Shown: positions 3,797-64,000 of the stretch, piece after piece
Layout: each line of letters begins with the position of its first letter
Position numbering within the stretch: the first letter of the stretch is position 1
Assembly: GCA_011634665.1 (NCBI GenBank)
Contig: WAEK01000017.1
Location: 1,140,300 to 1,204,299 of the forward strand
Source: Mortierella sp. BCC40632
Lineage: Eukaryota > Mortierellomycota > Mortierellomycetes > Mortierellales > Mortierellaceae
Direction of reading: 5' to 3'
Length of the DNA stretch: 64,000 nt
The notes under the pieces: generated by a model
What the model was told of the DNA's origin: nothing
Seen by the model: the letters and a program-made list of their open reading frames with translations, nothing else
Databases searched by the model: none
Made by a program: the position numbers and the translations under genes

Positions 3797-3798
3797 TA

Positions 3799-4839: not shown

Positions 4840-4841
4840 GC

Positions 4842-11100: not shown

Positions 11101-11711
11101 TCACCAGGAGCCAGGAAAGCCAAAATGCAGCCTAGACCCCCAATTTTTTTTTGCGCCCTGGCAAGAGCAAGGTAAAAGGACTCTGTGGCCTTTTTTTCAG
11201 AGCTGTGGGCCGACCCTGAGACGAGAAATCAGAGAGGAAAGCATTTTCATAGCATGTCCACAAAGGTCACATCACACAGCTGCGCCAACGCCAGAGGCCC
11301 CAGCCGGTCAGATTGAAGTCTCGACACCTGGAATTCCTTAAGAAATCCAAGGAACACCACTCTGGCTTCATGCTTGTTTAATGCCAAGGTGAGGGGCATG
11401 GCCAGGGAGCTCTAGGTCGACATTGCCTATTTTGACTTGTCCAAGATTTGGCAAAGGTGATTTGTCAAGTGATCACCAGGAGCCAGGAAAGCCAAAATGC
11501 AGCCTAGACCCCAATTTTTTTTTTTTGCGCCCTGGCAAGAGCAAGGTAAAAGGACTCTGTGGCCTTTTTTTCAGAGCTGTGGGCCGACCCTGAGACGAGA
11601 AATCAGAGAGGAAAGCATTTTCATAGCATGTCCACAAAGGTCACATCACACAGCTGCGCCAACGCCAGAGGCCCCAGCCGGTCAGATCGAAGTCTCGACA
11701 CCTGGAATTCC

Positions 11712-11888
11712 TTAAGAAATACAAGGAACATCACCTTGGCCACATGCTAGTTCAACGACAAGGTGCGGTCCTGGTTATGAAGCTCAGAATTCCAATGGTC
11801 AACATTATTTTCACAGAGATTTTTTACATGCCATCGGACCAGTGATCACTTGGAGTCAGGAGTGCCACACTGCAGCCTTGACCCCCAA
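11712..11888. repeat. Type-B half-unit, second copy
   Basis: Variant half following constant block 15, almost identical to the B half at 7991 while its A-type neighbours are diverged from it. This argues for exchange of whole halves rather than point mutation. Confidence 0.85.
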
Positions 11889-13959: not shown

Positions 13960-14880
13960 TTAAGAAATACAAGGAACATCACCTTGGCCACATGCTAGTT
14001 CAACGACAAGGTGCGGTCCTGGTTATGAAGCTCAGAATTCCAATGGTCAACATTATTTTCACAGAGATTTTTTACATGCCATCGGACCAGTGATCACTTG
14101 GAGTCAGGAGTGCCACACTGCAGCCTTGACCCCCACTTTTTTTTTTGCGCCCTGGCAAGAGCAAGGTAAAAAGGACTCTGTGGCCTTTTTTCAGAGCTGT
14201 GGGCCGACCCTGAGACGAGAAATCAGAGAGGAAAGCATTTTCATAGCATGTCCACAAAGGTCACATCACACAGCTGCGCCAACGCCAGAGGCCCCAGCCG
14301 GTCAGATCGAAGTCTCGACACCTGGAATTCCTTAAGAAATACAAGGAACATCACCTTGGCCACATGCTAGTTCAACGACAAGGTGCGGTCCTGGTTATGA
14401 AGCTCAGAATTCCAATGGTCAACATTATTTTCACAGAGATTTTTACATGCCATCGGACCAGTGATCACTTGGAGTCAGGAGTGCCACACTGCAGCCTTGA
14501 CCCCCAATTTTTTGCGCCCTGGCAAGAGCAAGGTAAAAGGACTCTGTGGCTTTTTTTTTTTTCAGAGCTGTGGGCCGACCCTGAGACGAGAAATCAGAGA
14601 GGAAAGCATTTTCATAGCATGTCCACAAAGGTCACATCACACAGCTGCGCCAACGCCAGAGGCCCCAGCCGGTCAGATTGAAGTCTCGACACCTGGAATT
14701 CCTTAAGAAATACAAGGAACATCACCTTGGCCACATGCTAGTTCAACGACAAGGTGCGGTCCTGGTTATGAAGCTCAGAATTCCAATGGTCAACATTATT
14801 TTCACAGAGATTTTTTACATGCCATCGGACCAGTGATCACTTGGAGTCAGGAGTGCCACACTGCAGCCTTGACCCCCAAT
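13960..14880. repeat. Three consecutive units with type-B halves
   Basis: B halves start near 13960, 14332 and 14703, alternating with constant blocks 22 and 23. This is the only place where B units are tandem. It lies near the right edge of the array. Confidence 0.85.
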
Positions 14881-15310
14881 TTTTTTTGCGCCCTGGCAAG
14901 AGCAAGGTAAAAGGACTCTGTGGCCTTTTTTTCAGAGCTGTGGGCCGACCCTGAGACGAGAAATCAGAGAGGAAAGCATTTTCATAGCATGTCCACAAAG
15001 GTCACATCACACAGCTGCGCCAACGCCAGAGGCCCCAGCCGGTCAGATCGAAGTCTCGACACCTGGAATTCCTTAAGTAATCCAAGGAACACCACTCTGG
15101 CTTCATGCTTGTTTAATGCCAAGGTGTGGGCATGGCCAGGGAGTGCAACAGTCAGAGGCCAGGGAGTCTTTGGTTTGGGCAGTTTATTGCTAAAGATTAA
15201 TGTAACTAAAGGGTTGACTATTTATACAAGTATTTTGGAGGCAATGTGGAGGGGGCGCGGTGGTGGTGGCAACTGGACAGTCACAAATAGTGGCAAAGAG
15301 CGCAGCTTGA

Positions 15311-46225: not shown

Positions 46226-46293
46226 AAGGGGAAGGTGCGACAGTGTTCTCTTCAAGATGGGCCCTGTTGAGGTTCTTTGTATAGTAATATCAC

Positions 46294-46332
46294 GATTTTA
46301 GGGTTTTTAATTAAGGTTTTAGGGTTTTTTAG
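46294..46332 (+). repeat. Internal telomere-like repeat at the proximal edge of the LINE array
   Basis: Degenerate TTTTAGGG units (TTTTAGGGTTTTTAATTAAGG, then TTTTAGGGTTTTTTA) between the broken Ty3 LTR and the 3' end of LINE copy 1. Same polarity as the terminal repeat: the G-rich strand runs rightward. Confidence 0.8.
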
Positions 46333-46456
46333 GCTTTAAGTTCTTTTAATAGTGTGGCCAGAAGGCAATCTAAGAGTAGGGAAGGCTATGGAAGTGATAT
46401 GGCGAAGGGAGAGTCGAAAAAATCAATGTTGAAAAAAAAGTCAAGTCGAAAATATT

Positions 46457-49400
46457 CTAAGTCAAAAGAGTAGGGTGTGTGATGCGGGAGGGGAACCAGT
46501 CAGAGCGTCTAAGTCGGCTTCCGTCAGGGTGGAATGGCCAGGGAGGGGGATCAGTGTTGTAGTTTTGACGAGGCCTCTGCCAGAACTCGAGATAGCCAAA
46601 GGCTGTCGCAAGAGCAGAAAACTTCTTCGTGCGGAGGAGGTAATCTATCACATTAAAGTGCAAGATCAGCCCCGGAGGAGGATTGTGGAGGAAAGCTTGG
46701 TACGCATCAACACAACCACGAGGAAGATATCCACAGAGGTCAGCGTCGAAGCACTCCTTGACATGGCGACGAGAGAATCTCTGCTCACACTTGGAGCAAT
46801 CTGAGCCAGCAGCAAAGTGATTCAGACTCCAAGCGATAGCATTCTTGCGGAGACGAAGAGAATTTAAAAAGACAAAGTAGCAACTGCCACTAAGTCGCTT
46901 TCGCATCTCTGGGACAAACTGGCGGGGCATGACAAGATTCAGAGAACCAACGTCAGCATAAAACTTGTTCCTCAGGAATAACCGGAGAGGGTACCCTGTA
47001 CTCTCATGGGTCAATCCAGGCGGCAATGGGTCCAAAGTGCGCGACTCGATGCTTCTTTTGACACTCAACCACTGGGAATAATCCGGGTGACGAGTGACAT
47101 GGGGCAAGATGCGATCGTGAGGGCGACGAGTGAACCAAATGCGGCCACGGATGTGTGCAGAGGATTAGAGTGGTGCATTTTCTGGAAGTGGCGAGTCAAA
47201 AGACAGGCCAAGTCCGAAAAGCGACGCGTTACAACAGGAATAGCCAGCATGGAGTGCATGGCGACAAGTCCAATGTTGTGCTCTGTGATCCAGCAAAGTG
47301 CACGATCTTGTACAGCCTGGACCGGGAGGAGATACTGGAACCGCGAAGTATCATTCTTGTGGACAAAGGGGAACGGGGCCGGAGTGCTAGCATTGCGACC
47401 AGGCGAGTTCATGAGCCAACGATAGACCAAGCCAGCACCATAGTCCATTTGAGAACGAACAAAGGTGCGATAAAAAAGGCAAGGCGAAGACCAGCAGGCC
47501 AAAGACTTCCACGACGAACACAAATGTCCAAAGTCGAGGTAGCCTTTTGCAACAGTAGACTCGAGGTGAGCCTCCCAGTTGATGCCTAACTTCTCGAATG
47601 GGAATCCAAGATATGTATAGCGGTCAACACGGGGAATCTCTCCATGACCAGGAATGATCGGAGTGGGTTCATGAGGGCCAAAGCCAACAGCACCACACTT
47701 GGAGAGATTCAACTGCATGCCATTGTCGTGAGACCAGGCAGCAAGCTTGTTGGTCGAAACCTGTAAGTCAGACGGAAACTCGGACGAGGCCGTGATATCG
47801 TCAGCAAACAGAAGCGATCGCGGGAGGCAGCTATTTGGCACTGTATCTTGATGCAAGAGGGAGGCAAGGTCGTCAATAAAGACGTCGAACAGCAGAGGAG
47901 ACAAGAGAGACCCTTGGAAAAGACCACGGGTCAAGTCTATCGATCTCGTCTGCCGCCCATTCACCACGATCTTGGAAGAAGTCCCCAGGAAGAGGGAATC
48001 AACCAAAGCTAGAATCTGGGTCGAAGCACCCCTGGACTCGAGCTTGGAAAGCAAGAGTGGGACAGGGACAGTGTCATACGCCTGAGCAAAGTCGTAAAAC
48101 ACCCTACAACGGTGACCGAGAATGGCAGCTTCGTGGGCCGTCAGAGCGTGCGTCAACGTGGAGAACCCACGTCGAAAGCCAGCCTGAGTCGAATGCAAGC
48201 GGAACGCTGGGGAGCGTTCGAAGAACCGAATCAACAACCTCTCAAAGGACCGACGCATCATCACAGTAAGTGAAATGGGTCTGAACTTGTTGATAGTTGT
48301 CTCCTCACCCTTGGGGATGGGGAAGATTACCGAGCGGTTCCATGAGGCAGGTGTCACACCGAGTAGACAACACAACCGGAACAACTCAATAGTCCGAAAC
48401 GGAAGACTAGAACCAATAAGGGCTCGAAGAAGGCGAATATGAACACCATCCTCTCCCCCTGCAACATGAGCTCGATACTTTCTCCAAAACCGAATCAAAG
48501 TCGTCAGACCAAAGTCGTCAGACCACAGGATCTCATTTGTGAATGAGACTCCACGATAAGGTGAGACAGGAGGGGGAAGCAACTCGTCGCGAGTCTGCCG
48601 AAACACACCAGAAAAGTGGTTCACAGCATCCTCAGCAGGAGTGATCGAAGGATCTCGAGACGTCAGGGTAACAGTCTTTGTGCGGCAAGCTCGTTTGAAA
48701 GTACGGACAGCGTCAGCCAACGAAGGAGCATCTGAGATATCATCCCAGAGTCGATCAGCCGAAGCGCGCATCACGGACGGAACATACGAACCACACACCT
48801 CCTCGGCGGCAACATGAATGGCACTAACAATAGATTCATCCAAGTCGTCGACCAAGCGCTGGCGATCAACCAAAGAAATAACATCAAGCCCACCAGCCGT
48901 AGACAGTTCCTCAACGCGGTGAAGAACTTGACTACTGTAATCGGCAAAGTCCTCAGCGCAAGCATCAAAGCTGTTGCATAGGTCTGAGCGAACACGGGCG
49001 TGCACGAGATATTTCAGGTTGAACCTGCGGGCCTCTTGAGTCGGGGACACATCCATAGGAGCACGAAGCTCTAGGACGCAGTCCATCATCTTGTGGTCAG
49101 ACGTGGTATATGGAGACGAATCAACATAAGACCAACGGAAGTCTTGACGGCAGCGGACCAGTGCGTGATGATTCTTGGCGGTGCCAGGAGAAGGGAGGTT
49201 AAGGAAATAACAACCAGATCTCATGACCCTCGACACACACTCAACTCGATCTGAAGGGCCTCCACGAGAACCACGACCAGACAAAGAGTCGAGACGCACA
49301 TTGAGGTCGCCAAGAATAACATCAGGAAGACCAGGGGAAGAAGTAGAACAAGAGATGTGGCGGATGAAAAAGGATTCAAAGTCGGCGATGGGAAGAGAAG

Positions 49401-49729
49401 GTGGCAGATAGAGGGAACGGAAGGTGGAACCAAGGAGGGAAAGATCAATGGAATGGGACGTAACAGAAAAGGATATGTGGCGACGAACAGGGGGTGACAC
49501 AATGCAGAGGAGACCACCATGGCGGCGACCAGCTGCAGTGGCCTGAGGGAGGGGGGAGGAACAAAGGAAGAGGGGATGAGAAGAGTACAAGGACTGATCC
49601 AAGTACCAAGTCTCGGAGCAAATGAAGATATCAAACTGGGAAGGAAAAAAAAGAACAAATACGCTCAAAGTCAAGACCCGGAAGTCCACGACAATTGAGG
49701 TAGGCAATACGAACAAACTTACTATTCAT
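46457..49729 (-). CDS. LINE copy 1 ORF2: APE endonuclease, reverse transcriptase, CCHC
   Basis: Starts at ATG 49729 overlapping the ORF1 stop. An A-run difference near 49650 shifts the first ~25 codons out of frame. From there an 883-codon frame runs to 47065, then a last frame to 46457. Endonuclease motifs: CSETWYLDQ, GDLNVRLDS and SDHKMMD. RT motifs: FPIPKGEETTINKFRPISL, GFRRGFSTL, FYDFAQAYDTVP, GLFQGSLLSPLLF and LLFADDIT (near 47798-47818). A CCHC finger (CSKCEQRFSRRHVKEC) lies near 46750-46800. This organisation is that of APE-type non-LTR elements: nick the target, prime cDNA from it. It is the least interrupted ORF2 of the three. Confidence 0.9.
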
Positions 49730-49731
49730 TA
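49727..49731 (-). promoter_or_regulatory. TAATG stop/start overlap, copy 1
   Basis: ORF1 stop TAA and ORF2 start ATG share one A on the minus strand, suggesting ORF2 is translated by termination-reinitiation. Confidence 0.75.
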
Positions 49732-51896
49732 AAGTTCTTCCCCAGAGTCTTCAGCGACTGGATCGGCGGCAGGGGCAGGGACAACAGGTGTATCGCAGTT
49801 CATCTCAACATCAACAGCAACTGCAGGTGCAGAAGTGGCAATAGGGAGAGGCACAGGGATAGTCTTGTCAGGTAGATCCTCAGGAATCGGCAAGTTTCCG
49901 GTGCGGAGCAAATTCAAAAAGTGCTCGCGGACAACAGGGAGGGTGGTGGAGCCAACCGTCTTAGTAAGACGATCGCTGTAGGCCTTTTTGACTCTAGCAC
50001 GAACCTCAGGAGTCGCAGTGGCGTCACCTGGGACAGAAGGATCATATGTGGGAAGGTGGCGGAAAGAAAAAGCAGCAAGTGTTGAGACCAAGTTGTCCTT
50101 GTAAGAGGACTCCACGAGGAGCTCCAAAATAGAACGACCAACGAAGGCAAAGTTATGAATAGCCGAGGTGCGTACGCGCAGGGCTCGGAACTTTGTCTTT
50201 AGTTGTCCAAGTGGGCAAGACTCAATGCCACCAAAGTAGACTCGAACAACAGGGGTGGAAGGAGGTGAGGGGTGACGACGTGATTGAAAGGGTCGAGGGG
50301 AAGGCTTTAGTGAATTGATAATCTTACGCTGTTCATCAGAGAGATTGGCTCTAAGAGAGTCAGCGTAAGAACGAGGGGGAGCGTGGTGAGAAGACGATGG
50401 AGAGGCTGTGGAGGGAGTAGAGGTAACAGGAGTGTGGGGGGGTGACGACGAGTGGAGGATGGGGGGGGGCAGGAAGTGAAGGGAAAGCGAGGGAAGCAGT
50501 TGTTGTCGAAGTCATGGCAGCTTCTAGTCGGTCGGCAAAGGGAGTCCAATCTGTCAAAGTTAGAATTCAACTTTTCAAAAAAGAGGATTCAGTCTTGTCG
50601 ACTCGAGAAGAAATGACAGACAGACACTTTCTTCGACAACTCTGCAACTTGTGAGCTCAAAAGGTCAAACTGAGGGGCGAGGAACGATGTGGGGCGTTGT
50701 CGCAGGGAGCCAAGTTCATTCTGGACAGATTGCAACATGTTTTTCAAAGACTGGTGTTCTTTAAGGAGACGATCCTGGGTAACGGATAAATCTTCAAAAA
50801 GAACAGGGTCCAACTTGCGTAACTTCTCCCATCGGGGACCAAAGGAAGTAGAATTACGAAGGGCGGCAGCGGAAGATGATTCAGGGGCATCGGGAAGGGT
50901 GTCGTCGGAGTCGGATTCCACAATCGTGTGAATTCTTTTGCGTGCGGGCTTGGGGGTGATAGGCTTGGGTGGAATGGGTGTACCATGGGGGACAGGGGCG
51001 CCAAAAGAACGAATGGTGGAAACAACGGCAGGATCAGGGACAGGTGAAGGAGCAGGAGACATAGAAGCTGGGATAGTTTGGTAGGGTTGGAAGGTGAAGG
51101 GGGAATTGGGGAAATCAGAAGAACAAGAAACCGGAGGCAAGGAAGGCAACAGAGAGGAACTAGGGGTAGGGTCGGAACAGGATTCGGTGGAGTCCATGAC
51201 TTCATCAAGATCATCAGTCCCGATACCGCTGAAGGGAATAACGGAAGAATCGGTGCTCTCGGCAAATTGCGACATAGAGGAGATATTCTCCAAGTCCATG
51301 GTAGAGAGGTCTTCATCAACCGGGGCAGAAGCACTTGCAGGGAAAGAGAGGATAGGGTCGTCCATGGGGTCAAGGTTTGGAGGAAACGCGGTAGAAGCAG
51401 AAGGGAGATCAACAGAGGTAGGTGCGGAGGAACCAAAATGAACAACAGGGGCAGAAGAGGAAGCAGAGATAGGTGCAGACTGAATGGAATCGGATGAGGC
51501 AGTGGAAGTTGAAGGAGGGGGAACAAAGATCGGATTGGGAGAAGAGAGGATGAAAGAGGAAGAAGAAAGGGGTTGGGTGATAGGAGAGGCGGTACAGCCC
51601 AAACCACCATCCAGGGGAAGTAAAACTTCAATCACCTGGCGAGCGGTGAACTGCTCATGCTTACAGGAGCGGCGATAAGTTCTGACAAACATGGAATTTG
51701 TCGACTTGACTTGATTCTTGTAAAAGACAGGGTCGGCCTTGCAGTCCTTGTTGGGGCATGGCTTCGGCCACTGGCTGGAGTAAAGGCGAAGAAGGCGTTC
51801 GGCCTCAATACGATCCTCAGGGAAGCAAGAGAACTTGTCCTTGATTGCAACTGGATCAGATTACTGCGGGGGGGTTATGGTTTGGGGGGTCCCCAT
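49729..51896 (-). pseudogene. LINE copy 1 ORF1 (RNA-binding/telomere-targeting protein candidate), frameshifted
   Basis: About 720 codons from ATG 51896. Order: a Cys/His motif near the start (KPCPNKDCKAD...RSCKHEQF, possible zinc finger), a long Ser/Pro-rich region, a coiled-coil (LSVTQDRLLKEHQSLKNML, QVAELSKKV), a second Ser/Pro stretch, then a compact C-terminal domain (VVRVYFGGIESCPLGQLKTK, IHNFAFVGRSILELLVE) and an acidic end (…AEDSGEEL). Main uninterrupted part 50589-51692. ORF1 proteins of such elements coat the RNA, and in telomeric LINEs they help locate telomeres; that is inference here. Confidence 0.75.
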
Positions 51897-51931
51897 GATG
51901 AAGGAGATGCAACGAACCTGGCGGAAGGGGG

Positions 51932-51940
51932 ATTATATAA
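51932..51940 (-). promoter_or_regulatory. TATA box, LINE copy 1
   Basis: Minus strand TTATATAAT, about 36 nt upstream of the ORF1 ATG and ~175 bp inside the element's 5' end. Conserved in copies 2 and 3. Confidence 0.5.
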
Positions 51941-52113
51941 GAAAATGATCCCGGGAGAGTGCGGAAAAAAAAAATGGAAGGAATAGGGTGAGTCAGAGTG
52001 ACCAAAAAGATGGCGTGATTACTGCGGGTGGCTTTTGTTATGGTTTGAGTGGCAGTGCAGGGGGGCCAGAAGGATCTGGCGTGGGAAAGTGGAGGGGGCA
52101 ACGTTTAGCCAGG

Positions 52114-52150
52114 ATTTAGGGCTTAGTTAGGGATTTTTTAGGGTTTTTTA
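52114..52150 (+). repeat. Telomere-like linker between LINE copies 1 and 2
   Basis: Degenerate repeat TTTAGGGCTTAGTTAGGGAT then TTTTTAGGG and T-rich sequence. It begins with the same TTTAGGGCTTAGTTAGGG as the next linker. Confidence 0.85.
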
Positions 52151-52284
52151 GGCTTTAAGTTCTTTTAATAGTGTGGCCAGAAGGCAATCTAAGAGTAGGG
52201 AAGGCTATGGAAGTGATATGGCGAGGGAGAGTCGAAAAAATCAAAGTTGAAAAAAAAAAAAAGTCAAGTCGAAAATATTCTAAG

Positions 52285-55200
52285 TCAAAAGAGTAGGGTG
52301 TGTGTGATGGGGGGGAACCAGTCAGAGCGTCTAAGTCGGCTTCCGTCAGGGTGGAATGGCCAGGGAGGGGGATCAGTGTTGTAGTTATGACGAGGCCTCT
52401 GCCAGAACTCGAGATAGCCAAAGGCTGTCGCAAGAGCAGGAAACTTCTTCGTGCGGAGGAGGTAATCTATCACATTAAAGTGCAAGATCAGCCCCGGAGG
52501 AGGATTGTGGAGGAAAGCTTGGTACGCATCAACACAACCACGAGGAAGATATCCACAGAGGTCAGCGTCGAAGCACTCCTTGACATGGCGACGAGAGAAT
52601 CTCTGCTTACACTTGGAGCAATCTGAGCCAGCAGCAAAGTGATTCAGACTCCAAGCGATAGCATTCTTGCGGAGACGAAGAGAATTTAAAAAGACAAAGT
52701 AGCAACTGCCACTAAGTCGCTTTCGCATCTCTGGGACAAACTGGCGGGGCATGACAAGATTCAGAGAACCAACGTCAGCATAAAACTTGTTCCTCAGGAA
52801 TAACCGGAGAGGGTACCCTGTACTCTCATGGGTCAATCCAGGCGGCAATGGGTCCAAAGTGCGCGACTCGATGCTTCTTTTGACACTCAACCACTGGGAA
52901 TAATCCGGGTGACGAGTGACATGGGGCAAGATGCGATCGTGGGGGCGACGAGTGAACCAAATGCGGCCACGGATGTGTGCAGCAGGATTAGAGTGGTGCA
53001 TTTTCTGGAAGTGGCGAGTCAAAAGACAGGCCAAGTCCGAAAAGCGACGCGTTACAACAGGAATAGCCAGCATGGAGTGCATGGCGACAAAGTCCAATGT
53101 TGTGCTCTGTGATCCAGCAAAGTGCACGATCTTGTACAGCCTGGACCGGGAGGAGATACTGGAACCGCGAAGTATCATTCTTGTGGACAAAGGGGAACGG
53201 GGCCGGAGTGCTAGCATTGCGACCAGGCGAGTTCATGAGCCAACGATAGACCAAGCCAGCACCATAGTCCATTTGAGAACGAACAAAGGTGCGATAAAAA
53301 AGGCAAGGCGAAGACCAGCAGGCCAAAGACTTCCACGACGAACACAAATGTCCAAAGTCGAGGTAGCCTTTGCAACAGTAGACTCGAGGTGAGCCTCCCA
53401 GTTGATGCCTAACTTCTCGAATGGGAATCCAAGATATGTATAGCGGTCAACACGGGGAATCTCTCCATGACCAGGAATGATCGGAGTGGGTTCATGGGGG
53501 CCAAAGCCAACAGCACCACACTTGAGAGATTCAACTGCATGCCATTGTCGTGAGACCAGGCAGCAAGCTTGTTGGTCGAAACCTGTAAGTTCAGACGGAA
53601 ACTCGGACGAGGCCGTGATATCGTCAGCAAACAGAAGCGATCGCGGGAGGCAGCTATTTGGCACTGTATCTTGATGCAAGAGGGAGGCAAGGTCGTCAAT
53701 AAAGACGTCGAACAGCAGAGGAGACAAGAGAGACCCTTGGAAAAGACCACGGGTCAAGTCTATCGATCTCGTCTGCCGCCCATTCACCACGATCTTGGAA
53801 GAAGTCCCCAGGAAGAGGGAATCAACCAAAGCTAGAATCTGGGTCGAAGCACCCCTGGACTCGAGCTTGGAAAGCAAGAGTGGGACAGGGACAGTGTCAT
53901 ACGCCTGAGCAAAGTCGTAAAACACCCTACAACGGTGACCGAGAATGGCAGCTTCGTGGGCCGTCAGAGCGTGCGTCAACGTGGAGAACCCACGTCGAAA
54001 GCCAGCCTGAGTCGAATGCAAGCGGAACGCTGGGGAGCGTTCGAAGAACCGAATCAACAACCCTCAAAGGACCGACGCATCATCACAGTAGTGAAATGGG
54101 TCTGAACTTGTTGATAGTTGTCTCCTCACCCTTGGGGATGGGGAAGATTACCGAGCGGTTCCATGAGGCAGGTGTCACACCGAGTAGACAACACAACCGG
54201 AACAACTCAATAGTCCGAAACGGAAGACTAGAACCAATAAGGGCTCGAAGAAGGCGAATATGAACACCATCCTCTCCCCCTGCAACATGAGCTCGATACT
54301 TTCTCCAAAACCGAATCAAAGTCGTCAGACCAAAGTCGTCAGACCACAGGATTTCATTTGTGAATGAGACTCCACGATAAGGTGAGACAGGAGGGGGAAG
54401 CAACTCGTCGCGAGTCTGCCGAAACACACCAGAAAAGTGGTTCACAGCATCCTCAGCAGGAGTGATCGAAGGATCTCGAGACGTCAGGGTAACAGTCTTT
54501 GTGCGGCAAGCTCGTTTGAAAGTACGGACAGCGTCAGCCAACGAAGGAGCATCTGAGATATCATCCCAGAGTCGATCAGCAGAAGCGCGCATCACGGACG
54601 GAACATACGAACCACACACCTCCTCGGCGGCAACATGAATGGCACTAACAATAGATTCATCCAAGTCGTCGACCAAGCGCTGGCGATCAACCAAAGAAAT
54701 AACATCAAGCCCACCAGCCGTAGACAGTTCCTCAACGCGGTGAAGAACTTGACTACTGTAATCGGCAAAGTCCTCAGCGCAAGCATCAAAGCTGTTGCAT
54801 AGGTCTGAGCGAACGCGGGCGTGCACGAGATATTTCAGGTTGAACCTGCGGGCCTCTTGAGTCGGGGACACATCCATAGGAGCACGAAGCTCTAGGACGC
54901 AGTCCATCATCTTGTGGTCAGACGTGGTATATGGAGACGAATCAACATAAGACCAACTGAAGTCTTGACGGCAGCGGACCAGTGCGTGATGATTCTTGGC
55001 GGTGCCAGGAGAAGGGAGGTTAAGGAAATAACAACCAGATCTCATGACCCTCGACACACACTCAACTCGATCTGAAGGGCCTCCACGAGAGCCACGACCA
55101 GACAAAAAGAGTCGAGACGCACATTGAGGTCGCCAAGAATAACATCAGGAAGACCAGGGGAAGAAGTAGAACAAGAGATGTGGCGGATGAAAAAGGATTC

Positions 55201-55551
55201 AAAGTCGGCGATGGGAAGAGAAGGTGGCAGATAGAGGGAACGGAAGGTGGAACCAAGGAGGGAAAGATCAATGGAATGGGACGTAACAGAAAAGGATATA
55301 TGGCGACGAACAGGGGGTGACACAATGCAGAGGAGACCACCATGGCGGCGACCAGCTGCAGTGGCCTGAGGGAGGGGGGAGGAACAAAGGAAGAGGGGAT
55401 GAGAAGAGTACAAGGACTGATCCAAGTACCAAGTCTCGGAGCAAATGAAGATATCAAACTGGGAAGGAACAAAAGAACAAATACGCTCAAAGTCAAGACC
55501 CGGAAGTCCACGACAATTGAGGTAGGCAATACGAACAAACTTACTATTCAT
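52285..55551 (-). pseudogene. LINE copy 2 ORF2 (frameshifted)
   Basis: Starts MNSKFVRIAYLNCRG at 55551, keeping the N-terminal endonuclease Asn motif that copy 1 loses by frameshift. Frames: 55042-55551, 54083-55105, 53233-54060 and 52285-53217. Shifts lie near 55105 (A-run), 54062, 53525 and 53095. FADD is near 53618-53638 and the CCHC finger near 52575-52620. Domain content as in copy 1. Confidence 0.85.
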
Positions 55552-55553
55552 TA
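55549..55553 (-). promoter_or_regulatory. TAATG stop/start overlap, copy 2
   Basis: Same one-base overlap of ORF1 stop and ORF2 start as in copies 1 and 3. Confidence 0.75.
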
Positions 55554-57751
55554 AAGTTCTTCCCCAGAGTCTTCAGCGACTGGATCGGCGCAGGGGCAGG
55601 GGCAACAGGTGTATCGCAGTTCATCTCAACATCAGCAGCAACTGCAGGAGCAGAAGTGGCAATAGGGAGAGGCACAGGGGGATAGTCTTGTCAGGTAGAT
55701 CCTCAGGAATCGGCAAGTTGCCGATGCGGAGCAAATTCAAAAAGTGCTCGCGGACAACAGGGAGGGGTGGTGGAGCCAACCGTCTTAGTAAGACGATCGC
55801 TGTAGGCCTTTTTGACTCTAGCACGAACCTCAGGAGTCGCAGTGGCGTCACCTGGGGACAGAAGGATCATATGGGAAGGTGGCGGAAGAAAAAAAAAGCA
55901 GCAAGTGTTGAGACCAAGTTGTCCTTGTAAGAGGACTCCACGAGGAGCTCAAAATAGAACGACCAACGAAGGCAAAAGTTATGAATAGCCGAGGTGCGTA
56001 CGCGCAGGGCTCGGAACTTTGTCTTTAGTTGTCCAAGTGGGCAAGACTCAATGCCACCAAAGTAGACTCGAACAACAGGGTGGAAGGAGGTGAGGGGTGA
56101 CGACGACGATTGATTGAAAGGGTCGAGGGGAAGGCTTCAGTGAATTGATAATCTTACGCTGTTCATCAGAGAGATTGGCTCTAAGAGAGTCAGCATAAGA
56201 AGAGGGGGGGGGAGGTGGTGAGAAGACGACGGAGGAGAGGGCTGTGGAGGGAGTAGAGGTAACAGGAGTGGTGGGGGTGACGACGAGTGGAGGATGGCGG
56301 GGCAGGAAGTGAAGGGAAAGCGAGGGAAGCAGTTGTTGTCGAAGTCATGGCAGCTTCTAGTCGGTCGGCAAGGGAGTCCAAATCTGTCAAAGTTAGAATT
56401 CAACTTTTCAAAAAAAGAGGATTCAGTCTTGTCGACTCGAGAAGAAAATGACAGACACTTTCTTCGACAACTCTGCAACTTGTGAGCTCAAAAGGTCAAA
56501 CTGAGGGGCGAGGAACGATGGGGGCGTTGTCGCAGGGAGCCAAGTTCATTCTGGACAGATTGCAACATGTTTTTCAAAAGACTGGTGTTCTTTTAAGGAG
56601 ACGATCCTGGGTAACGGATAAATCTTCAAAAAAAGAACAGGATCCAACTTGCGTAACTTCTCCCATCGGGGACCAAAGGAAGTAGAATTACGAGGGGGCG
56701 GCAGCGGAAGATGATTCAGGGGCATCGGGGAAGGGTGTCGTCGGAGTCGGATTCCACAATCGTGTGAATTCTTTTTGCGTGCGGGCTTGGGGGTGATAGG
56801 CTGGGGTGGAATGGGCACCACGGGGGGGGACAGGGGGTCCAAAGAACGAATTGTGGAAACAACGGCAGGATCAGGGACAGGTGAAGGAGCAGGAGACATA
56901 GAAGCTGGGATAGTTTGGTAGGGTTGGAAGGTGAGGGGGAATTGGGGAAATCAGAAGAACAAGAAAGCCGGAGGAGGAAAGGAAGGCAACAGAGAGGAAC
57001 TAGGGGGTAGGGTCGGAACAGGATTCGGTGGAGTCCATGACTTCATCAAGATCAGCCGTCCCGATACCGGTGAATGGAATGGAATGGAATAAGGAAAGAA
57101 TCGGTGCTCTCGGCAAATTGGGGGACATAGAGGAGATATTCTCCAAGTCCATGGTAGAGAGGTCTTCATCAACCGGGGCAGAAGCACTTGCAGGGGGAAA
57201 GAGAGGATAGGGTCGTCCATGGGGTCAAGGTTTGGAGGAAACACGGTAGAAGCAGAAGGGAGAACAACAGAGGTGTTGTCAAAAGTGGAGGAACCAAAAT
57301 GAACAACAGGGGCAGAAGAGAAAGGAAGCAGATATAGGTGTAGACTGAATGGAATCGGGATGAGGCAGGGGAAGTTGAAGGGGGGGAAAAAAGATCGGAT
57401 TGGGAGAAGAGGGATGACAGAGGAAGAAGAAAGGGGTTGGGTGATAGGAGAGGCGGTACAGCCCAAACCACCATCATCAGGGGAAGTAAAACTTCAATCA
57501 CCTGGGCGAGCGGTGAACTGCTCATGCTTACAGGAGCGGCGATAAGTTCTGACAAACATGGAATTTGTCGACTTGACTTGATTCTTTCTTGTAAAGACAG
57601 GGTCGGCCTTGCAGTCCTTGTTGGGGCATGGCTTCGGCCACTGGCTGGAGTAAAGGCGAAGAAGGCGTTCGGCCTCAATACGATCCTCAGGGAAGCAAGA
57701 GAACTTGTCCTTGATTGCAACTGGATCAGAGGGGGTCCCGGGGGTCCCCAT
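55551..57751 (-). pseudogene. LINE copy 2 ORF1 (heavily frameshifted)
   Basis: ATG 57751 begins MGTPGTPSDPVAIKDKFSCF and keeps the true N-terminus through the Cys/His segment (CPNKDC...RSCKHEQF). Downstream it breaks into many short frames by G- and A-run indels, although nucleotide identity to copies 1 and 3 stays high. Confidence 0.75.
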
Positions 57752-57786
57752 GATGAAGGAGATGCAACGAACCTGGCGGAAGGGGG

Positions 57787-57795
57787 ATTATATAA
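57787..57795 (-). promoter_or_regulatory. TATA box, LINE copy 2
   Basis: Minus strand TTATATAAT about 36 nt upstream of the ORF1 ATG. Confidence 0.5.
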
Positions 57796-57966
57796 GAAAA
57801 TGATCCCGGGAGAGTGCGGAAAAAAAAATGGAAGGAATAGGGTGAGTCAGAGTGACCAAAAAGATGGCGTGATTACTGCGGGTGGCTTTTGTTATGGTTT
57901 GAGTGGCAGTGCAGGGGGGCCAGAAGGATCTGGCGTGGGAAAGTGGAGGGGGCAACGTTTAGCCAG

Positions 57967-58024
57967 GATTTAGGGCTTAGTTAGGGGTTTTTTTAGGGTT
58001 TTTTAGGGTTTTTTTAGGGTTTTA
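57967..58024 (+). repeat. Telomere-like linker between LINE copies 2 and 3
   Basis: 58 bp: TTTAGGGCTTAGTTAGGGG, then three or four T-rich AGGG units. Longer than the linker at 52114 but with the same first 18 bases. Confidence 0.85.
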
Positions 58025-58224
58025 GGCTTTAAGTTCTTTTAATAGTGTGGCCAGAAGGCAATCTAAGAGTAGGGAAGGCTATGGAAGTGATATGGCGAAG
58101 GAGGGAGAGTCGAAAAAAAATCAAAGAAAAAAAAAAGTCAAGTCGAAAATATTCTAAGTCAAAAAAGAGTAGGGTGTGTGATGCGGGGGGGGGGAACCAG
58201 TCAGAGCGTCTAAGTCGGCTTCCG

Positions 58225-61200
58225 TCAGGGGTGGAATGGCCAGGGCGGGGGATCAGGGTTGTAGTTTTGACGAGGCCTCTGCCAGAACTCGAGATAGCCA
58301 AAGGCTGTCGCAAGAGCAGAAAACTTCTTCGTGCGGAGGAGGTAATCTATCACATTAAAGTGCAAGATCAGCCCCGGAGGAGGATTGTGGAGGAAAGCTT
58401 GGTACGCATCAACACAACCACGAGGAAGATATCCACAGAGGTCAGCGTCGAAGCACTCCTTGACATGGCGACGAGAGAATCTCTGCTTACACTTGGAGCA
58501 ATCTGAGCCAGCAGCAAAGTGATTCAGACTCCAAGCGATAGCATTCTTGCGGAGACGAAGAGAATTTAAAAAGACAAAGTAGCAACTGCCACTAAGTCGC
58601 TTTCGCATCTCTGGGACAAACTGGCGGGGCATGACAAGATTCAGAGAACCAACGTCTGCATAAAACTTGTTCCTCAGGAATAACCGGAGAGGGTACCCTG
58701 TACTCTCATGGGTCAATCCAGGCGGCAATGGGTCCAAAGTGCGCGACTCGATGCTTCTTTTGACACTCAACCACTGGGAATAATCCGGGTGACGAGTGAC
58801 ATGGGGCAAGATGCGATCGTGGGGGCGACGAGTGAACCAAATGCGGCCACGGATGTGTGCAGCAGGATTAGAGTGGTGCATTTTCTGGAAGTGGCGAGTC
58901 AAAAGACAGGCCAAGTCCGAAAAGCGACGCGTTACAACAGGAATAGCCAGCATGGAGTGCATGGCGACAAGTCCAATGTTGTGCTCTGTGATCCAGCAAA
59001 GTGCACGATCTTGTACAGCCTGGACCGGGAGGAGATACTGGAACCGCGAAGTATCATTCTTGTGGACAAAGGGGAACGGGGCCGGAGTGCTAGCATTACG
59101 ACCAGGCGAGTTCATGAGCCAACGATAGACCAAGCCAGCACCATAGTCCATTTGAGAACGAACAAAGGTGCGATAAAAAAAGGCAAGGCGAAGACCAGCA
59201 GGCCAAAGACTTCCACGACGAACACAAATGTCCAAAGTCGAGGTAGCCTTTGCAACAGTAGACTCGAGGTGAGCCTCCCAGTTGATGCCTAACTTCTCGA
59301 ATGGGAATCCAAGATATGTATAGCGGTCAACACGGGGAATCTCTCCATGACCAGGAATGATCGGAGTGGGTTCATGAGGGGCCAAAGCCAACAGCACCCA
59401 CTTGGGAGAGATTCAACTGCATGCCATTGTCGTGAGACCAGGCAGCAAGCTTGTTGGTCGACACCTGTAAGTCAGACGGAAACTCGGACGAGGCCGTGAT
59501 ATCGTCAGCAAACAGAAGCGATCGCGGGAGGCAGCTATTTGGCACTGTATCTTGATGCAAGAGGGAGGCAAGGTCGTCAATAAAGACGTCGACAGCAGAG
59601 GAGACAAGAGAGACCCTTGGAAAAGACCACGGGTCAAGTCTATCGATCTCGTCTGCCGCCCATTCACCACGATCTTGGAAGAAGTCCCCAGGAAGAGGGA
59701 ATCAACCAAAGCTAGAATCTGGGTCGAAGCACCCCTGGACTCGAGCTTGGAAAGCAAGAGTGGGACAGGGACAGTGTCATACGCCTGAGCAAAGTCGTAA
59801 AACACCCTACAACGGTGACCGAGAATGGCAGCTTCGTGGGCCGTCAGAGCGTGCGTCAACGTGGAGAACCCACGTCGAAAGCCAGCCTGAGTCGAATGCA
59901 AGCGGAACGCTGGGGGGAGCGTTCGAAGAACCGAATCAACAACCTCTCAAAGGACCGACGCATCATCACAGTAAGTGAAATGGGTCTGAACTTGTTGATA
60001 GTTGTCTCCTCACCCTTGGGGATGGGGAAGATTACCGAGCGGTTCCATGAGGCAGGTGTCACACCGAGTAGACAACACAACCGGAACAACTCAATAGTCC
60101 GAAACGGAAGACTAGAACCAATAAGGGCTCGAAGAAGGCGAATATGAACACCATCCTCTCCCCCTGCAACATGAGCTCGATACTTTTCTCCAAAACCGAA
60201 TCAAAGTCGTCAGACCAAAGTCGTCAGACCACAGGATTTCATTTGTGAATGAGACTCCACGATAAGGTGAGACAGGAGGGGGAAGCAACTCGTCGCGAGT
60301 CTGCCGAAACACACCAGAAAAGTGGTTCACAGCATCCTCAGCAGGAGTGATCGAAGGATCTCGAGACGTCAGGGTAACAGTCTTTGTGCGGCAAGCTCGT
60401 TTGAAAGTACGGACAGCGTCAGCCAACGAAGGAGCATCTGAGATATCATCCCAGAGTCGATCAGCAGAAGCGCGCATCACGGACGGAACATACGAACCAC
60501 ACACCTCCTCGGCGGCAACATGAATGGCACTAACAATAGATTCATCCAAGTCGTCGACCAAGCGCTGGCGATCAACCAAAGAAATAACATCAAGCCCACC
60601 AGCCGTAGACAGTTCCTCAACGCGGTGAAGAACTTGACTACTGTAATCGGCAAAGTCCTCAGCGCAAGCATCAAAGCTGTTGCATAGGTCTGAGCGAACG
60701 CGGGCGTGCACGAGATATTTCAGGTTGAACCTGCGGGCCTCTTGAGTCGGGGACACATCCATAGGAGCACGAAGCTCTAGGACGCAGTCCATCATCTTGT
60801 GGTCAGACGTGGTATATGGAGACGAATCAACATAAGACCAACTGAAGTCTTGACGGCAGCGGACCAGTGCGTGATGATTCTTGGCGGTGCCAGGAGAAGG
60901 GAGGTTAAGGAAATAACAACCAGATCTCATGACCCTCGACACACACTCAACTCGATCTGAAGGGCCTCCACGAGAACCACGACCAGACAAAGAGTCGAGA
61001 CGCACATTGAGGTCGCCGAGAATAACATCAGGAAGACCAGGGGAAGAAGTAGAACAAGAGATGTGGCGGATGAAAAAGGATTCAAAGTCGGCGATGGGAA
61101 GAGAAGGTGGCAGATAGAGGGAACGGAAGGTGGAACCAAGGAGGGAAAGATCAATGGAATGGGACGTAACAGAAAAGGATATATGGCGACGAACAAGGGG

Positions 61201-61434
61201 TGACACAATGCAGAGGAGACCACCATGGCGGCGACCAGCTGCAGTGGCCTGAGGGAGGGGGGAGGAACAAAGGAAGAGGGGATGAGAAGAGTACAAGGAC
61301 TGATCCAAGTACCAAGTCTCGGAGCAAATGAAGATATCAAACTGGGAAGGAACAAAAGAACAAATACGCTCAAAGTCAAGACCCGGAAGTCCACGACAAT
61401 TGAGGTAGGCAATACGAACAAACTTACTATTCAT
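58225..61434 (-). pseudogene. LINE copy 3 ORF2 (few frameshifts)
   Basis: ATG 61434. A 440-codon frame (60112-61434) covers the endonuclease (YLNCRGLPGLDF, CSETWYLDQ, GDLNVRLDS, SDHKMMD) and the linker. RT is split by shifts near 60186, 59912 and 59590-59400; FADD is near 59498-59518. A 390-codon frame (58225-59397) covers the thumb and the C-terminal CCHC finger. Expected full length is ~1070 aa. Confidence 0.87.
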
Positions 61435-61436
61435 TA
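61432..61436 (-). promoter_or_regulatory. TAATG stop/start overlap, copy 3
   Basis: TAA (61436-61434) and ATG (61434-61432) share one base. Identical context in all three copies. Confidence 0.75.
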
Positions 61437-63577
61437 AAGTTCTTCCCCAGAGTCTTCAGCGACTGGATCGGCGGCAGGGGCAGGGGCAACAGGTGTATCG
61501 CAGTTCATCTCAACATCAGCAGCAACTGCAGGAGCAGAAGTGGCAATAGGGAGAGGCACAGGGATAGTCTTGTCAGGTAGATCCTCAGGAATCGGCAAGT
61601 TGCCGATGCGGAGCAAATTCAAAAAGTGCTCGCGGACAACAGGGAGGGTGGTGGAGCCAACCGTCTTAGTAAGACGATCGCTGTAGGCCTTTTTGACTCT
61701 AGCACGAACCTCAGGAGTCGCAGTGGCGTCACCTGGGACAGAAGGATCATATGTTGGAAGGTGGCGGAAGGAAAAAGCAGCAAGTGTTGAGACCAAGTTG
61801 TCCTTGTAAGAGGACTCACGAGGAGGAGCTCCAAAATAGAACGACCAACGAAGGCAAAGTTATGAATAGCCGAAGTGCGTACGCGCAGGGCTCGGAACTT
61901 TGTCTTTAGTTGTCCAAGTGGGCAAGACTCAATGCCACCAAAGTAGACTCGAACAACAGGGGTGGAAGGAGGTGAGGGGTGACGACGTGATTGAAAGGGT
62001 CGAGGGGAAGGCTTCAGTGAATTGATAATCTTACGCTGTTCATCAGAGAGATTGGCTCTAAGAGAGTCAGCGTAAGAACGAGGGGGAGCGTGGTGAGAAG
62101 ACGACGGAGAGGCTGTGGAGGGAGTAGAGGTAACAGGAGTGGTGGGGTGACGACGAGTGGAGGATGGCGGGGCAGGAAGTGAAGGGAAAGCGAGGGAAGC
62201 AGTTGTTGTCGAAGTCATGGCAGCTTCTAGTCGGTCGGCAAGGGAGTCCAATCTGTCAAAGTTAGAATTCAACTTTTCAAAAAAGAGGATTCAGTCTTGT
62301 CGACTCGAGAGAAAATGACAGACACTTTCTTCGACAACTCTGCAACTTGTGAGCTCAAAAGGTCAAACTGAGGGGCGAGGAACGATGTGGGGCGTTGTCG
62401 CAGGGAGCCAAGTTCATTCTGGACAGATTGCAACATGTTTTTCAAAGACTGGTGTTCTTTAAGGAGACGATCCTGGGTAACGGATAAATCTTCAAAAAGA
62501 ACAGGATCCAACTTGCGTAACTTCTCCCATCGGGGACCAAAGGAAGTAGAATTACGAAGGGCGGCAGCGGAAGATGATTCAGGGGCATCGGGAAGGGTGT
62601 CGTCGGAGTCGGATTCCACAATCGTGTGAATTCTTTTTTGCGTGCGGGCTTGGGGGTGATAGCTGGGGGGGTGGAATGGGTGTACCACGGGGGGACAGGG
62701 GGTCAAAGAACGAATTGTGGAAACAACGGCAGGATCAGGGACAGGTGAAGGAGCAGGAGACATAGAAGCTGGGATAGTTTGGTAGGGTTGGAAGGTGAAG
62801 GGGGAATTGGGGAAATCAGAAGAACAAGAAGCCGGAGGCAAGGAAGGCAACAGAGAGGAACTAGGGGTAGGGTCGGAACAGGATTCGGTGGAGTCCATGA
62901 CTTCATCAAGATCAGCCGTCCCGATACCGGTGAATGGAATAACGGAAGAATCGGTGCTCTCGGCAAATTGGGACATAGAGGAGATATTCTCCAAGTCCAT
63001 GGTAGAGAGGTCTTCATCAACCGGGGCAGAAGCACTTGCAGGGAAAGAGAGGATAGGGTCGTCCATGGGGTCAAGGTTTGGAGGAAACACGGTAGAAGCA
63101 GAAGGGAGAACAACAGAGGTATGTGCGGAGGAACCAAAATGAACAACAGGGGCAGAAGAGGAAGCAGATATAGGTGTAGACTGAATGGAATCGGATGAGG
63201 CAGGGGAAGTTGAAGGAGGGGGAACAAAGATCGGATTGGGAGAAGAGAGGATGACAGAGGAAGAAGAAAGGGGTTGGGTGATAGGAGAGGCGGTACAGCC
63301 CAAACCACCATCCAGGGGAAGTAAAACTTCAATCACCTGGCGAGCGGTGAACTGCTCATGCTTACAGGAGCGGCGATAAGTTCTGACAAACATGGAATTT
63401 GTCGACTTGACTTGATTCTTGTAAAAGACAGGGTCGGCCTTGCAGTCCTTGTTGGGGCATGGCTTCGGCCACTGGCTGGAGTAAAGGCGAAGAAGGCGTT
63501 CGGCCTCAATACGATCCTCAGGGAAGCAAGAGAACTTGTCCTTGATTGCAACTGGATCAGAGGGGGGGGGTCCCCAT
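61434..63577 (-). pseudogene. LINE copy 3 ORF1 (few frameshifts)
   Basis: ATG 63577. A run of nine G at 63562-63570 shifts the frame right after the start; the 374-codon frame 62269-63393 then covers the Ser/Pro region and the coiled-coil. Further frames at 61619-62272 and 61434-61796 complete the C-terminal domain (TYDPSVPGDATATPEVRARV) and the acidic tail. Total about 714 codons. Confidence 0.77.
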
Positions 63578-63612
63578 GATGAAGGAGATGCAACGAACCT
63601 GGCGGAAGGGGG

Positions 63613-63621
63613 ATTATATAA
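63613..63621 (-). promoter_or_regulatory. TATA box, LINE copy 3
   Basis: Minus strand TTATATAAT 36 nt upstream of the ORF1 ATG at 63577. Confidence 0.5.
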
Positions 63622-63818
63622 GAAAATGATCCCGGGAGAGTGATTACTGCGGGAAAAAAAATGGAAGGAATAGGGGTGAGTCAGAGGGTGACCAAGTGAA
63701 AAAGATGGATTGATTACTGCGGGTGGCTTTTGTTATGGTTTGAGTGGCAGTGCAGGGGGGGGGGCCAGAAGGATCTGGCGTGGGGAAAGTGGAGGGGGGC
63801 AACGTTTTAGCCAGGGAT

Positions 63819-64000
63819 TTAGGGATTTTTTTAGGGTTTTTAGGGTTTTAGGGTTTTAGGGTTTTAGGGTTTTAGGGTTTTAGGGTTTTAGGGTTTTAGG
63901 GTTTTAGGGTTTTAGGGTTTTAGGGTTTTAGGGTTTTTTAGGGTTTTAGGGTTTTAGGGTTTTAGGGTTTTTAGGGTTTTTAGGGTTTTAGGAGTTTTAG
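63819..64000 (+). repeat. Terminal telomere repeat (TTTTAGGG)n
   Basis: About 20 AGGG units, mostly 8-mers TTTTAGGG with occasional extra T, running to the end of the window. The G-rich strand reads 5' to 3' toward the right, the polarity of a right chromosome end. Whether the chromosome truly ends here or the repeat continues beyond the window cannot be seen. Confidence 0.9.

What the first reader, a model, noticed from the sequence alone, without database searches (positions are those of the whole stretch)
46294..64000. Head-to-tail LINE array that appears to extend a chromosome end
Three ~5.8-kb LINE copies all point their 3' ends to the centromere and 5' ends to the telomere, are joined by 36-60 bp of telomere-like repeat and are capped by a TTTTAGGG tract. 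The RNA 3' end would run into CCTAAAAAACCC-type sequence complementary to the telomeric G strand. This is the geometry expected if the free 3' end of the chromosome primes reverse transcription and telomere repeats are added between rounds. Telomeric LINEs are known (SART/TRAS of silkworm, HeT-A/TART of Drosophila, MoTeR of Magnaporthe). This APE-type family next to TTTTAGGG is not one I recognise.
Basis: partly seen in the sequence, partly recalled or inferred. Interest (0 to 1): 0.9.

Follow-up and report, generated by a model that had tools for sequence, protein, structure and literature searches.

The report
Fungal retrotransposon stacked on chromosome ends
Copies of a jumping gene sit in rows at the ends of several chromosomes of what is probably a Mortierella-like soil fungus, all facing the same way and joined by bits of telomere, so it looks specialised to live on, and perhaps lengthen, chromosome ends.

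Summary
Three ~5.8-kb LINE copies (46330-63841) lie head to tail at the very end of contig C17, 3' ends inward, capped by ~21 TTTTAGGG units. In the 49.9-Mb assembly this LINE family was found on nine contigs only. Five arrays lie at contig ends, where 13 of 13 copies have the 5' end outward. The only telomere-type tracts found genome-wide lie beyond or between LINE copies (C17, C9). The internal array on C11 is flanked by the same subtelomere, so it looks like an internalised or misjoined end; a C5 fragment is unexplained.

The element has two ORFs and an APE-type endonuclease (fold matches L1-EN and TRAS1-EN). It has no poly(A): its 3' end is complementary to the telomere G strand, and its 5' terminus is itself telomere-like. 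A telomerase domain is present. Best reading: the G-strand 3' end primes reverse transcription and telomerase recaps the product; ectopic exchange then reshuffles arrays. Free-end priming versus nicking inside telomere repeats is unresolved. The geometry matches MoTeR/FoTeR, but those carry a restriction-like endonuclease. Verdict: new variant of a known kind.

The parts
46288..46329 (+). Proximal junction: chromosome-side telomere-like remnant TCACGATTTTAGGGTTTTTAATTAAGGTTTTAGGG... next to LINE 3' end; near-identical junction at C8, C9, C27 and, with small differences, C45
46330..52140 (-). LINE copy 1 (subfamily A), 3' end at 46330, 5' end at ~52133
47065..49716 (-). Copy 1 ORF2 main frame (883 aa): endonuclease + reverse transcriptase (RVT_1 match at residues 467-706); frame broken near its C-terminus
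46457..47107 (-). Copy 1 ORF2 C-terminal frame (216 aa) with a CxxC...HxxxxC knuckle (motif read by eye)
50589..51692 (-). Copy 1 ORF1 frame (367 aa), no Pfam family above cut-off
52103..52133 (+). Telomere-like 5' terminus of copy 1 (GTTTAGCCAGGATTTAGGGCTTAGTTAGGGA)
52134..52148 (+). Inter-copy telomere-like tract 1 (T6AGGG-T5)
52149..57993 (-). LINE copy 2 (subfamily A)
57987..58022 (+). Inter-copy telomere-like tract 2 (T7AGGG T6AGGG T7AGGG)
58023..63841 (-). LINE copy 3 (subfamily A), outermost; its last 5' bases are altered
60112..61434 (-). Copy 3 ORF2 N-terminal frame (440 aa) with the APE/DNase I-type endonuclease
62269..63393 (-). Copy 3 ORF1 frame (374 aa)
63829..64000 (+). Terminal telomere tract, 20.8 x TTTTAGGG, to the contig end

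Best explanation
This is a telomere-specialised, two-ORF, APE-type LINE. Its transcript lacks poly(A) and ends in a C-strand telomere-like tail (...AAAGCCUAAAAAACCC). The 3' end of a short telomeric G-strand, most likely the chromosome's own end, anneals to this tail and primes reverse transcription. The antisense LINE is thereby laid down as a continuation of the G strand, with 3' end inward and 5' end outward. The finished cDNA ends in the element's telomere-like 5' terminus (...GGATTTAGGGCTTAGTTAGGGA), which acts as a seed that telomerase recaps with T4AGGG. Repetition gives head-to-tail arrays with 0-3 repeat units between copies. Ectopic exchange between ends then reshuffles copies. Shown: location, polarity, junctions, terminal sequences, endonuclease fold, presence of a telomerase RNA-binding domain, and recombination. 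Inferred: the transcript's ends (from DNA only), priming by the free end, seeding, and that the process is active now. The core claim (telomere-specialised LINE of fixed polarity) I put at about 0.93; the full free-end mechanism at about 0.5.
For: (1) The LINE 3' kb has 21 matches (21 of 21 candidates scored), on C5, C8, C9, C11, C17, C20, C27, C43, C45 only. The RT domain has 46 matches (48 of 48 candidates scored): 39 at 64-100% identity, all on those nine contigs, and 7 at 23-33%, which are other RT families. The A-type 5' portion (19 matches, 16 of 16 candidates) and the B-type ORF1 region (19 matches, 19 of 19) stay within the nine; so do the 85 full-ORF2 matches, but there only 51 of 89 candidates were scored. 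(2) At five contig ends 13 of 13 copies point 5' outward: C8 3, C9 2, C17 3, C27 2 on plus at right ends, C20 3 on minus at the left end. (3) The gapped telomere pattern has 20 forward and 0 reverse matches, all on C17 and C9, beyond or between LINE copies; 0 of 60 other contig-end samples of 400 bp hold two or more tandem units, 4 hold one TTAGGG or CCCTAA. (4) In 16 junctions found by the LINE's first bases (4 proximal, 12 inter-copy) all have a T-run preceded by AGGG or a near form (AAGG at C9, GGGA at C43), so the same repeat phase; C45 is a 17th. (5) Three copies with a diverged 5' UTR (74-78% by blastn over the matched ~255 bp) still hold the terminal 31 nt with one inserted base; they were located by that pattern, so the result is that 3 of 3 contain it. 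(6) Of 12 inter-copy junctions 10 carry the 5' terminus whole or with one changed last base, one (C9) has its last bases altered, one (C8) is scrambled; none joins a clearly 5'-truncated copy. (7) Telomerase_RBD matches on C29, 57.8 and 39.3 bits, cut-off 25.
Against: The likely endonuclease catalytic positions (N12, E39, D141, N143, D211, H212; their roles are recalled) are invariant in the 18 sequences aligned, 17 of the 39 relatives found plus the window's; an element using only free ends would not need them. Within-array copies are not significantly closer than between-array copies (0.67% vs 0.73%, permutation p 0.14) and 82 of 136 site pairs show all four combinations, so exchange alone could have made much of the arrays. 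Proximal junctions are shared between ends, so the 13 copies are not 13 independent events. C5 and C11 copies are internal in the assembly. The outermost copies at C17 and C9 have altered 5' termini under their caps, and C9's end carries three 3'-truncated 5' UTR fragments, not expected from simple tail priming and seeding.
Confidence: 0.5

Rival explanations
1. SART/TRAS-like target-primed insertion: the APE endonuclease nicks inside the telomeric repeat array, the nicked G strand primes on the C-rich RNA tail, and the distal remnant of the telomere (plus telomerase) caps the new copy.
For: APE-type endonuclease fold with Foldseek matches to TRAS1-EN (1wdu, E 5e-8), L1-EN and R1Bm-EN; likely catalytic residues invariant in the 18 sequences aligned; SART1Bm is reported to need at least three telomeric repeats and to insert in the third (abstract of PMC7265360), which would also leave short proximal tracts.
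Against: The measured inter-copy tracts are short, 5-36 bp (0-3 full units; 11 of 12 measurable), against 172 bp at the C17 end and 135 bp at the C9 end; random nicking of such an array should sometimes leave long proximal tracts. Short tracts may instead reflect loss: in M. oryzae interstitial tracts of more than 3 units are reported prone to breakage.
Confidence: 0.38
2. Array growth is mainly recombinational (break-induced replication or unequal exchange, like yeast Y' elements or MoTeR arrays); retrotransposition seeded telomeres rarely and the LINE is now largely a passenger.
For: No significant array clustering of sequences (p 0.14), A and B copies indistinguishable in the 3' 3.15 kb (AA 0.69%, BB 0.71%, AB 0.71%; the partial C20 outer copy was labelled A without its ORF1), 82 of 136 incompatible site pairs; shared proximal junctions at C8/C9 and C17/C27/C45; break-induced growth of some MoTeR arrays is reported.
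Against: Inter-copy tracts differ in unit number between junctions; two ORF1 modules alternate within arrays; copies of one subfamily differ by only about 0.4-1.6% in substitutions, the error-rich outer C27 copy apart, and at least one ORF2 frame is uninterrupted, so recent activity is plausible.
Confidence: 0.25
3. Assembly artefact: collapsed or chimeric repeats at contig ends.
For: Outer copies at C27, C8 and C9 carry indels and scrambled stretches; the arrays lie at contig ends; C11 and C5 may be misjoins through LTR elements.
Against: The same geometry recurs on five contig ends with different inter-copy tracts, and an LTR element inserted in a C11 copy has repeated flanking bases as expected of a real insertion (read by eye).
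Confidence: 0.03

Closest known systems
MoTeR1/MoTeR2 of Magnaporthe (Pyricularia) oryzae
   Same: Head-to-tail arrays, 5' ends toward the chromosome end, copies separated by half to >20 telomere units, telomere-like sequence at the 5' end, internalised relics, LTR elements inserting into the arrays (passages of PMC7367193); host has TERT (passages of PMC8381367)
   Different: MoTeR1 has a putative restriction-like endonuclease and SLACS/CRE-like RT; here a two-ORF element with an N-terminal APE-type endonuclease
FoTeR of Fusarium oxysporum
   Same: Reported only at telomeres, 5' end toward the terminus (passages of PMC12857005)
   Different: Protein of RT plus REL domain, in a clade with MoTeR1, Cnl1, SLACS and CRE
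SART1/TRAS1 of Bombyx mori
   Same: APE-type endonuclease, telomere-repeat-targeted, host keeps telomeric repeats; EN fold match to TRAS1
   [quoted passage not shown] no poly(A) here. RT clade membership not tested
Zepp of Chlorella vulgaris
   Same: LINE in a telomeric region (named in passages of PMC10088271; original paper not held)
   Different: Details of Zepp are recalled only: poly(A) tail, nested 5'-truncated copies, TTTAGGG host, L1-type; here no poly(A) and mostly full-length copies
HeT-A/TART/TAHRE of Drosophila
   Same: Head-to-tail, 3' ends toward the centromere
   Different: Those have poly(A) toward the centromere and the host lacks telomerase; here telomere repeats and a telomerase domain exist

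Membership tests
Non-LTR retrotransposon (LINE), APE-type | RVT_1 reverse transcriptase | tested here: met
   PF00078 E 1.8e-26, above cut-off; L1 ORF2p in PDB E 3.9e-14
Non-LTR retrotransposon (LINE), APE-type | N-terminal APE/DNase I-like endonuclease | tested here: met
   No Pfam endonuclease hit, but invariant likely catalytic positions and an AlphaFold model of moderate confidence (mean pLDDT 72, pTM 0.57) matching L1-EN, TRAS1-EN, R1Bm-EN
MoTeR/FoTeR/CRE-type telomeric elements | 5' ends toward chromosome end, head-to-tail, telomere units between copies | tested here: met
   13 of 13 copies at five contig ends; junctions
MoTeR/FoTeR/CRE-type telomeric elements | C-terminal restriction-like endonuclease instead of APE | tested here: not met
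   APE-type fold at the ORF2 N-terminus and a separate ORF1; the REL motif itself was not searched with a profile
SART/TRAS (R1 clade) | APE endonuclease and placement in telomeric repeats | tested here: met
SART/TRAS (R1 clade) | RT belongs to the R1 clade | not tested
   No R1 RT reference was fetched; no clade tree was built
SART/TRAS (R1 clade) | poly(A) tail at the 3' end | tested here: not met
   In the 16 junctions the sense strand ends in AAAGCCTA (AAAGACTA in two) followed by A-runs and CCC, not poly(A); transcripts not seen
HeT-A/TART-type telomere replacement | Telomerase absent | tested here: not met
   Telomerase_RBD matches on C29 above cut-off; TTTTAGGG tract
Any telomere-specific element | Absent from non-telomeric sites | tested here: inconclusive
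   C11 array flanked by C8/C9-type subtelomere; C5 fragment at 1.16 Mb of 3.27 Mb shares its flanking minisatellite with C20; C43 and C45 are ~50-kb contigs of unknown place
Any telomere-specific element | De novo insertions observed at telomeres | not testable with these tools
   No raw reads or second isolate

The most novel reading that the evidence does not exclude
Telomere repeats come in two flavours here: T4AGGG, made by telomerase, and T5-8AGGG, copied by the LINE's own reverse transcriptase from the A6CCC tail of its RNA. The element would then add telomere-like repeats itself and act as a second, LINE-encoded repeat source beside telomerase. Support: interstitial T-runs are longer than in the C17 cap (rank test p 5e-5, units not independent); proximal junctions read T4, T4, then T6 next to the LINE in 3 of 5 (C45 reads T4, T4, T7, T6; C9 only T4, T4); the C9 cap has mostly T6-7 units inside and T4-5 at the outside.
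Probability: 0.15. Interest if true: 0.82.

Novelty: new variant of a known kind. Interest (0 to 1): 0.62.

Why it matters
The telomeric LINEs in fungi that I could read about (MoTeR, FoTeR, and Cnl1 in their clade) use a restriction-like endonuclease. An APE-type, two-ORF element with the same geometry in a probable early-diverging fungus would be an independent origin of chromosome-end residence. It carries telomere-like sequence at both ends, which suggests a simple rule: the 3' tail binds the G strand, and the 5' end reseeds telomerase. It offers a natural case of telomerase and a LINE sharing chromosome ends, and makes free-end priming by a non-Drosophila LINE directly testable.

Tried and rejected
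Assembly artefact as the whole explanation: rejected because the geometry repeats on five contig ends. Simple tandem duplication within each array: not supported. Telomerase-less host: rejected. G-quadruplex enrichment as reported for other telomeric elements: 0 motifs on either strand of copy 1. Relatives in viral contigs: 108 pattern matches, none a relative. Species identity: not settled. The best LINE relative whose source names an organism (45%) and the best such gypsy relatives (57%) are from Entomortierella parvispora; no host housekeeping gene was compared. Pfam found no endonuclease, hence the fold test. Literature: searches showed, by titles and abstract starts of the rows listed (10 of 11, 12 of 187, 15 of 53), no APE-type telomeric LINE in a Mortierella-like fungus; the library lacks most subscription papers.

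Papers: PMC7367193, PMC12857005, PMC8381367, PMC10088271, PMC11005252, PMC10100673 and PMC4700185 seen as passages; PMC7265360 as abstract and section list; others as search listings only. Zepp, Y' and endonuclease catalytic-residue details are recalled.

Rows dropped or qualified: the C27 outer copy (error-rich contig end) and the C11 innermost copy (region missing) were left out of the statistics; the scrambled C8 second junction gave no tract. P0010 was left out of the alignment because its endonuclease region looks missing. The pattern read backwards gave 0 forward and 6 reverse chance matches, against 20 and 0 of the true pattern. In one search only 51 of 89 candidates were scored, so I repeated the census with the RT domain alone (48 of 48 scored) and with a distant relative (46 of 73 scored); one search shows 7 distant RT matches (23-33%) elsewhere (C2, C4, C11, C12, C14, two on C25), so the genome is not free of other RT families. 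Of the 124 contig ends, 60 were sampled for 400 bp and seven more were seen with the arrays (window); the rest were covered only by the pattern search.
Full report
What is in the window. The last 17.7 kb of the window are three copies of one ~5.8-kb element in direct tandem, coding strand on minus, ending in 20.8 units of TTTTAGGG at the end of contig C17. Copies 2 and 3 are 96.8% and 97.5% identical to copy 1. Between copies lie 16 and 36 bp of T6-7AGGG-type sequence beyond a telomere-like 5' terminus of the element itself.

What the element is. The ORF2 frame matches RVT_1 (E 1.8e-26) and L1 ORF2p (E 3.9e-14). Pfam finds no endonuclease, but the first ~220 residues carry invariant N12, E39, D141, N143, D211 and H212 in the 18 sequences aligned (the window's and 17 of 39 relatives). 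An AlphaFold model (mean pLDDT 72, pTM 0.57) matches L1-EN, TRAS1-EN (1wdu, E 5e-8) and R1Bm-EN. The ORF2 C-terminus has a CxxC...HxxxxC knuckle, read by eye. ORF1 is a separate frame with no Pfam family above cut-off. At least one copy in the genome has an uninterrupted ORF2 frame; the copies in this window have frame breaks. The element is therefore an APE-type, two-ORF LINE. Its RT clade was not resolved.

Genome-wide census. The 3' kb of the element has 21 matches, all on nine contigs. The RT domain has 46 matches with every candidate scored: 39 at 64-100% identity on the same nine contigs, and 7 at 23-33% elsewhere, which are other RT families (C4 also matches a distant relative). The 5' portion and a second ORF1 type stay within the nine. 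Five arrays lie at contig ends: C8 (3 copies), C9 (2), C17 (3) and C27 (2) at right ends on plus, C20 (3, the innermost interrupted by an insertion and reaching to 29 kb) at the left end on minus. That is 13 of 13 copies with the 5' end outward. A diverged ORF1 fragment near the left end of C8 (5875-6963, minus) would also point outward. The only telomere-type tracts found in the assembly are at the C17 and C9 ends and one C17 inter-copy junction (20 forward, 0 reverse matches; the backwards control gave 0 forward and 6 reverse). Among 60 further contig-end samples of 400 bp none holds two tandem telomere units; 4 hold a single TTAGGG or CCCTAA. So both telomere-capped ends found in this assembly carry LINE sequence directly beneath the cap. 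The other arrays at contig ends stop in the LINE (C8, C20, C27).

Exceptions. C11 has at least three copies at 987-1012 kb of a 1.64-Mb contig, cut by LTR-type insertions. The flank on their 3' side (1020.9-1021.6 kb, minus) matches the subtelomere of C8 and C9 (82-90% over 92-381 bp), and no LINE match was found below 987 kb apart from one distant RT at 230 kb. I read this as a chromosome end that was internalised or misjoined at an LTR element. C5 has one fragment at 1.16 Mb that shares its flanking minisatellite with the C20 array. C43 and C45 are ~50-kb contigs; C45 has nearly the same proximal junction. These are the results against strict telomere specificity.

Junctions. In 16 junctions located by the LINE's first bases (4 proximal, 12 inter-copy) the LINE 3' end always follows a T-run and AGGG or a near form, so the same phase of the repeat; a 17th, C45, is proximal. 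Read in the sense direction the transcript would end ...AAAGCCUAAAAAACCC, complementary to the G strand, with no poly(A). Of the 12 inter-copy junctions 10 carry the 5' terminus whole or with one changed last base; in C9 its last bases are altered and in C8 it is scrambled. The outermost copies of C17 and C9 also have altered termini. The 31-nt terminus is present, with one inserted base, in 3 of 3 copies whose upstream 5' UTR is otherwise diverged. Measured inter-copy tracts are 5-36 bp (11 of 12), far shorter than the caps (172 and 135 bp).

How copies relate. Two ORF1 modules, A and B, alternate within arrays (C8 B-A-B; C9 and C27 B-A; C17 A-A-A). Counted from the 3' end they differ by 18-25% over positions 3250-4000 (mostly the end of ORF1), are barely alignable from 4219 to 5556, but are not distinguishable in the 3' 3.15 kb. 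In that shared part, copies of one array are not significantly closer than copies of different arrays (0.67% vs 0.73%, p 0.14; 18 copies), and 82 of 136 site pairs show all four combinations. Exchange between ends, or template switching, is therefore extensive.

Mechanism. Established here: location, polarity, the tail and the 5' terminus. A telomerase RNA-binding domain lies on C29. The simplest scheme is G-strand priming on the C-rich tail, full-length copying, and recapping by telomerase on the 5' terminus. It explains polarity, constant phase, mostly full-length 5' ends and short tracts. It does not by itself explain why endonuclease residues are kept or the three 3'-truncated 5' UTR fragments at the C9 end. 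A SART-like nick inside the repeats explains the first; SART1Bm is reported to insert in the third of three repeats (abstract). Short tracts may also be survivors, since longer interstitial tracts break in M. oryzae. I give free-end priming 0.5, nicking 0.38, and array growth mainly by recombination 0.25; these overlap.

Comparison. MoTeR and FoTeR share the architecture in detail but have a restriction-like endonuclease and CRE-like RT, so this is not a member of that group although it works like one. SART/TRAS share the endonuclease type, but SART1Bm depends on poly(A). Zepp is close in kind but was not readable here.

Host. The nearest relatives with a named organism, of both the LINE (45%) and a neighbouring gypsy element (57%), are from Entomortierella parvispora, so a Mortierella-like fungus is likely but not proven.

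A bolder reading. Interstitial units next to the LINE are mostly T5-8AGGG while the C17 cap is mostly T4AGGG (p 5e-5, not independent units). Proximal junctions run T4, T4, T6 toward the LINE in 3 of 5, and the C9 cap is mostly T6-7 inside and T4-5 outside. The long-T units might be copied from the LINE RNA tail. Homopolymer errors could also explain this.

Noticed in passing
C9:2315930-2316528 (L033:5931-6529): Three tandem ~150-240-bp fragments of the LINE 5' UTR stacked outside the last full copy, joined near the ORF1 start codon with short shared bases, then the telomere tract; possibly copies of 3'-degraded RNA or microhomology repair.
   Followed up: partly
C8, C9, C20, C27, C11, C45 arrays: A second LINE subfamily (B) with a different ORF1 but an indistinguishable 3' 3.15 kb: modular exchange of ORF1.
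   Followed up: partly
window 46330-64000: The strand running toward the telomere is purine-rich (copy 1: G 31%, A 31%, C 20%, T 18%), like the telomeric G strand, although no G-quadruplex motif was found.
   Followed up: partly
window 6270-15143: Tandem array of a ~371-bp unit, 23.8 copies, 94% matches, about 31 kb inside the LINE array.
   Followed up: no
window 15000-46000: Nest of gypsy-type LTR elements, Tc1/mariner-like and Harbinger-like transposase frames (names by eye); no clear host gene noticed.
   Followed up: no
C11:995.9-1004.8 kb (L038:939-9800): LTR element with ends identical over 162 bp inserted inside a telomeric LINE copy, with repeated flanking bases; resembles MAGGY insertions in MoTeR arrays.
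   Followed up: partly
C8:5875-6963: Diverged (81%) B-type ORF1 fragment near the left contig end, also pointing outward.
   Followed up: no
C4:1995131-1995778 and six other places (C2, C11:230551, C12, C14, two on C25): Distant RT matches (23-33%) at internal sites, possibly other LINE families, some in long open frames.
   Followed up: no
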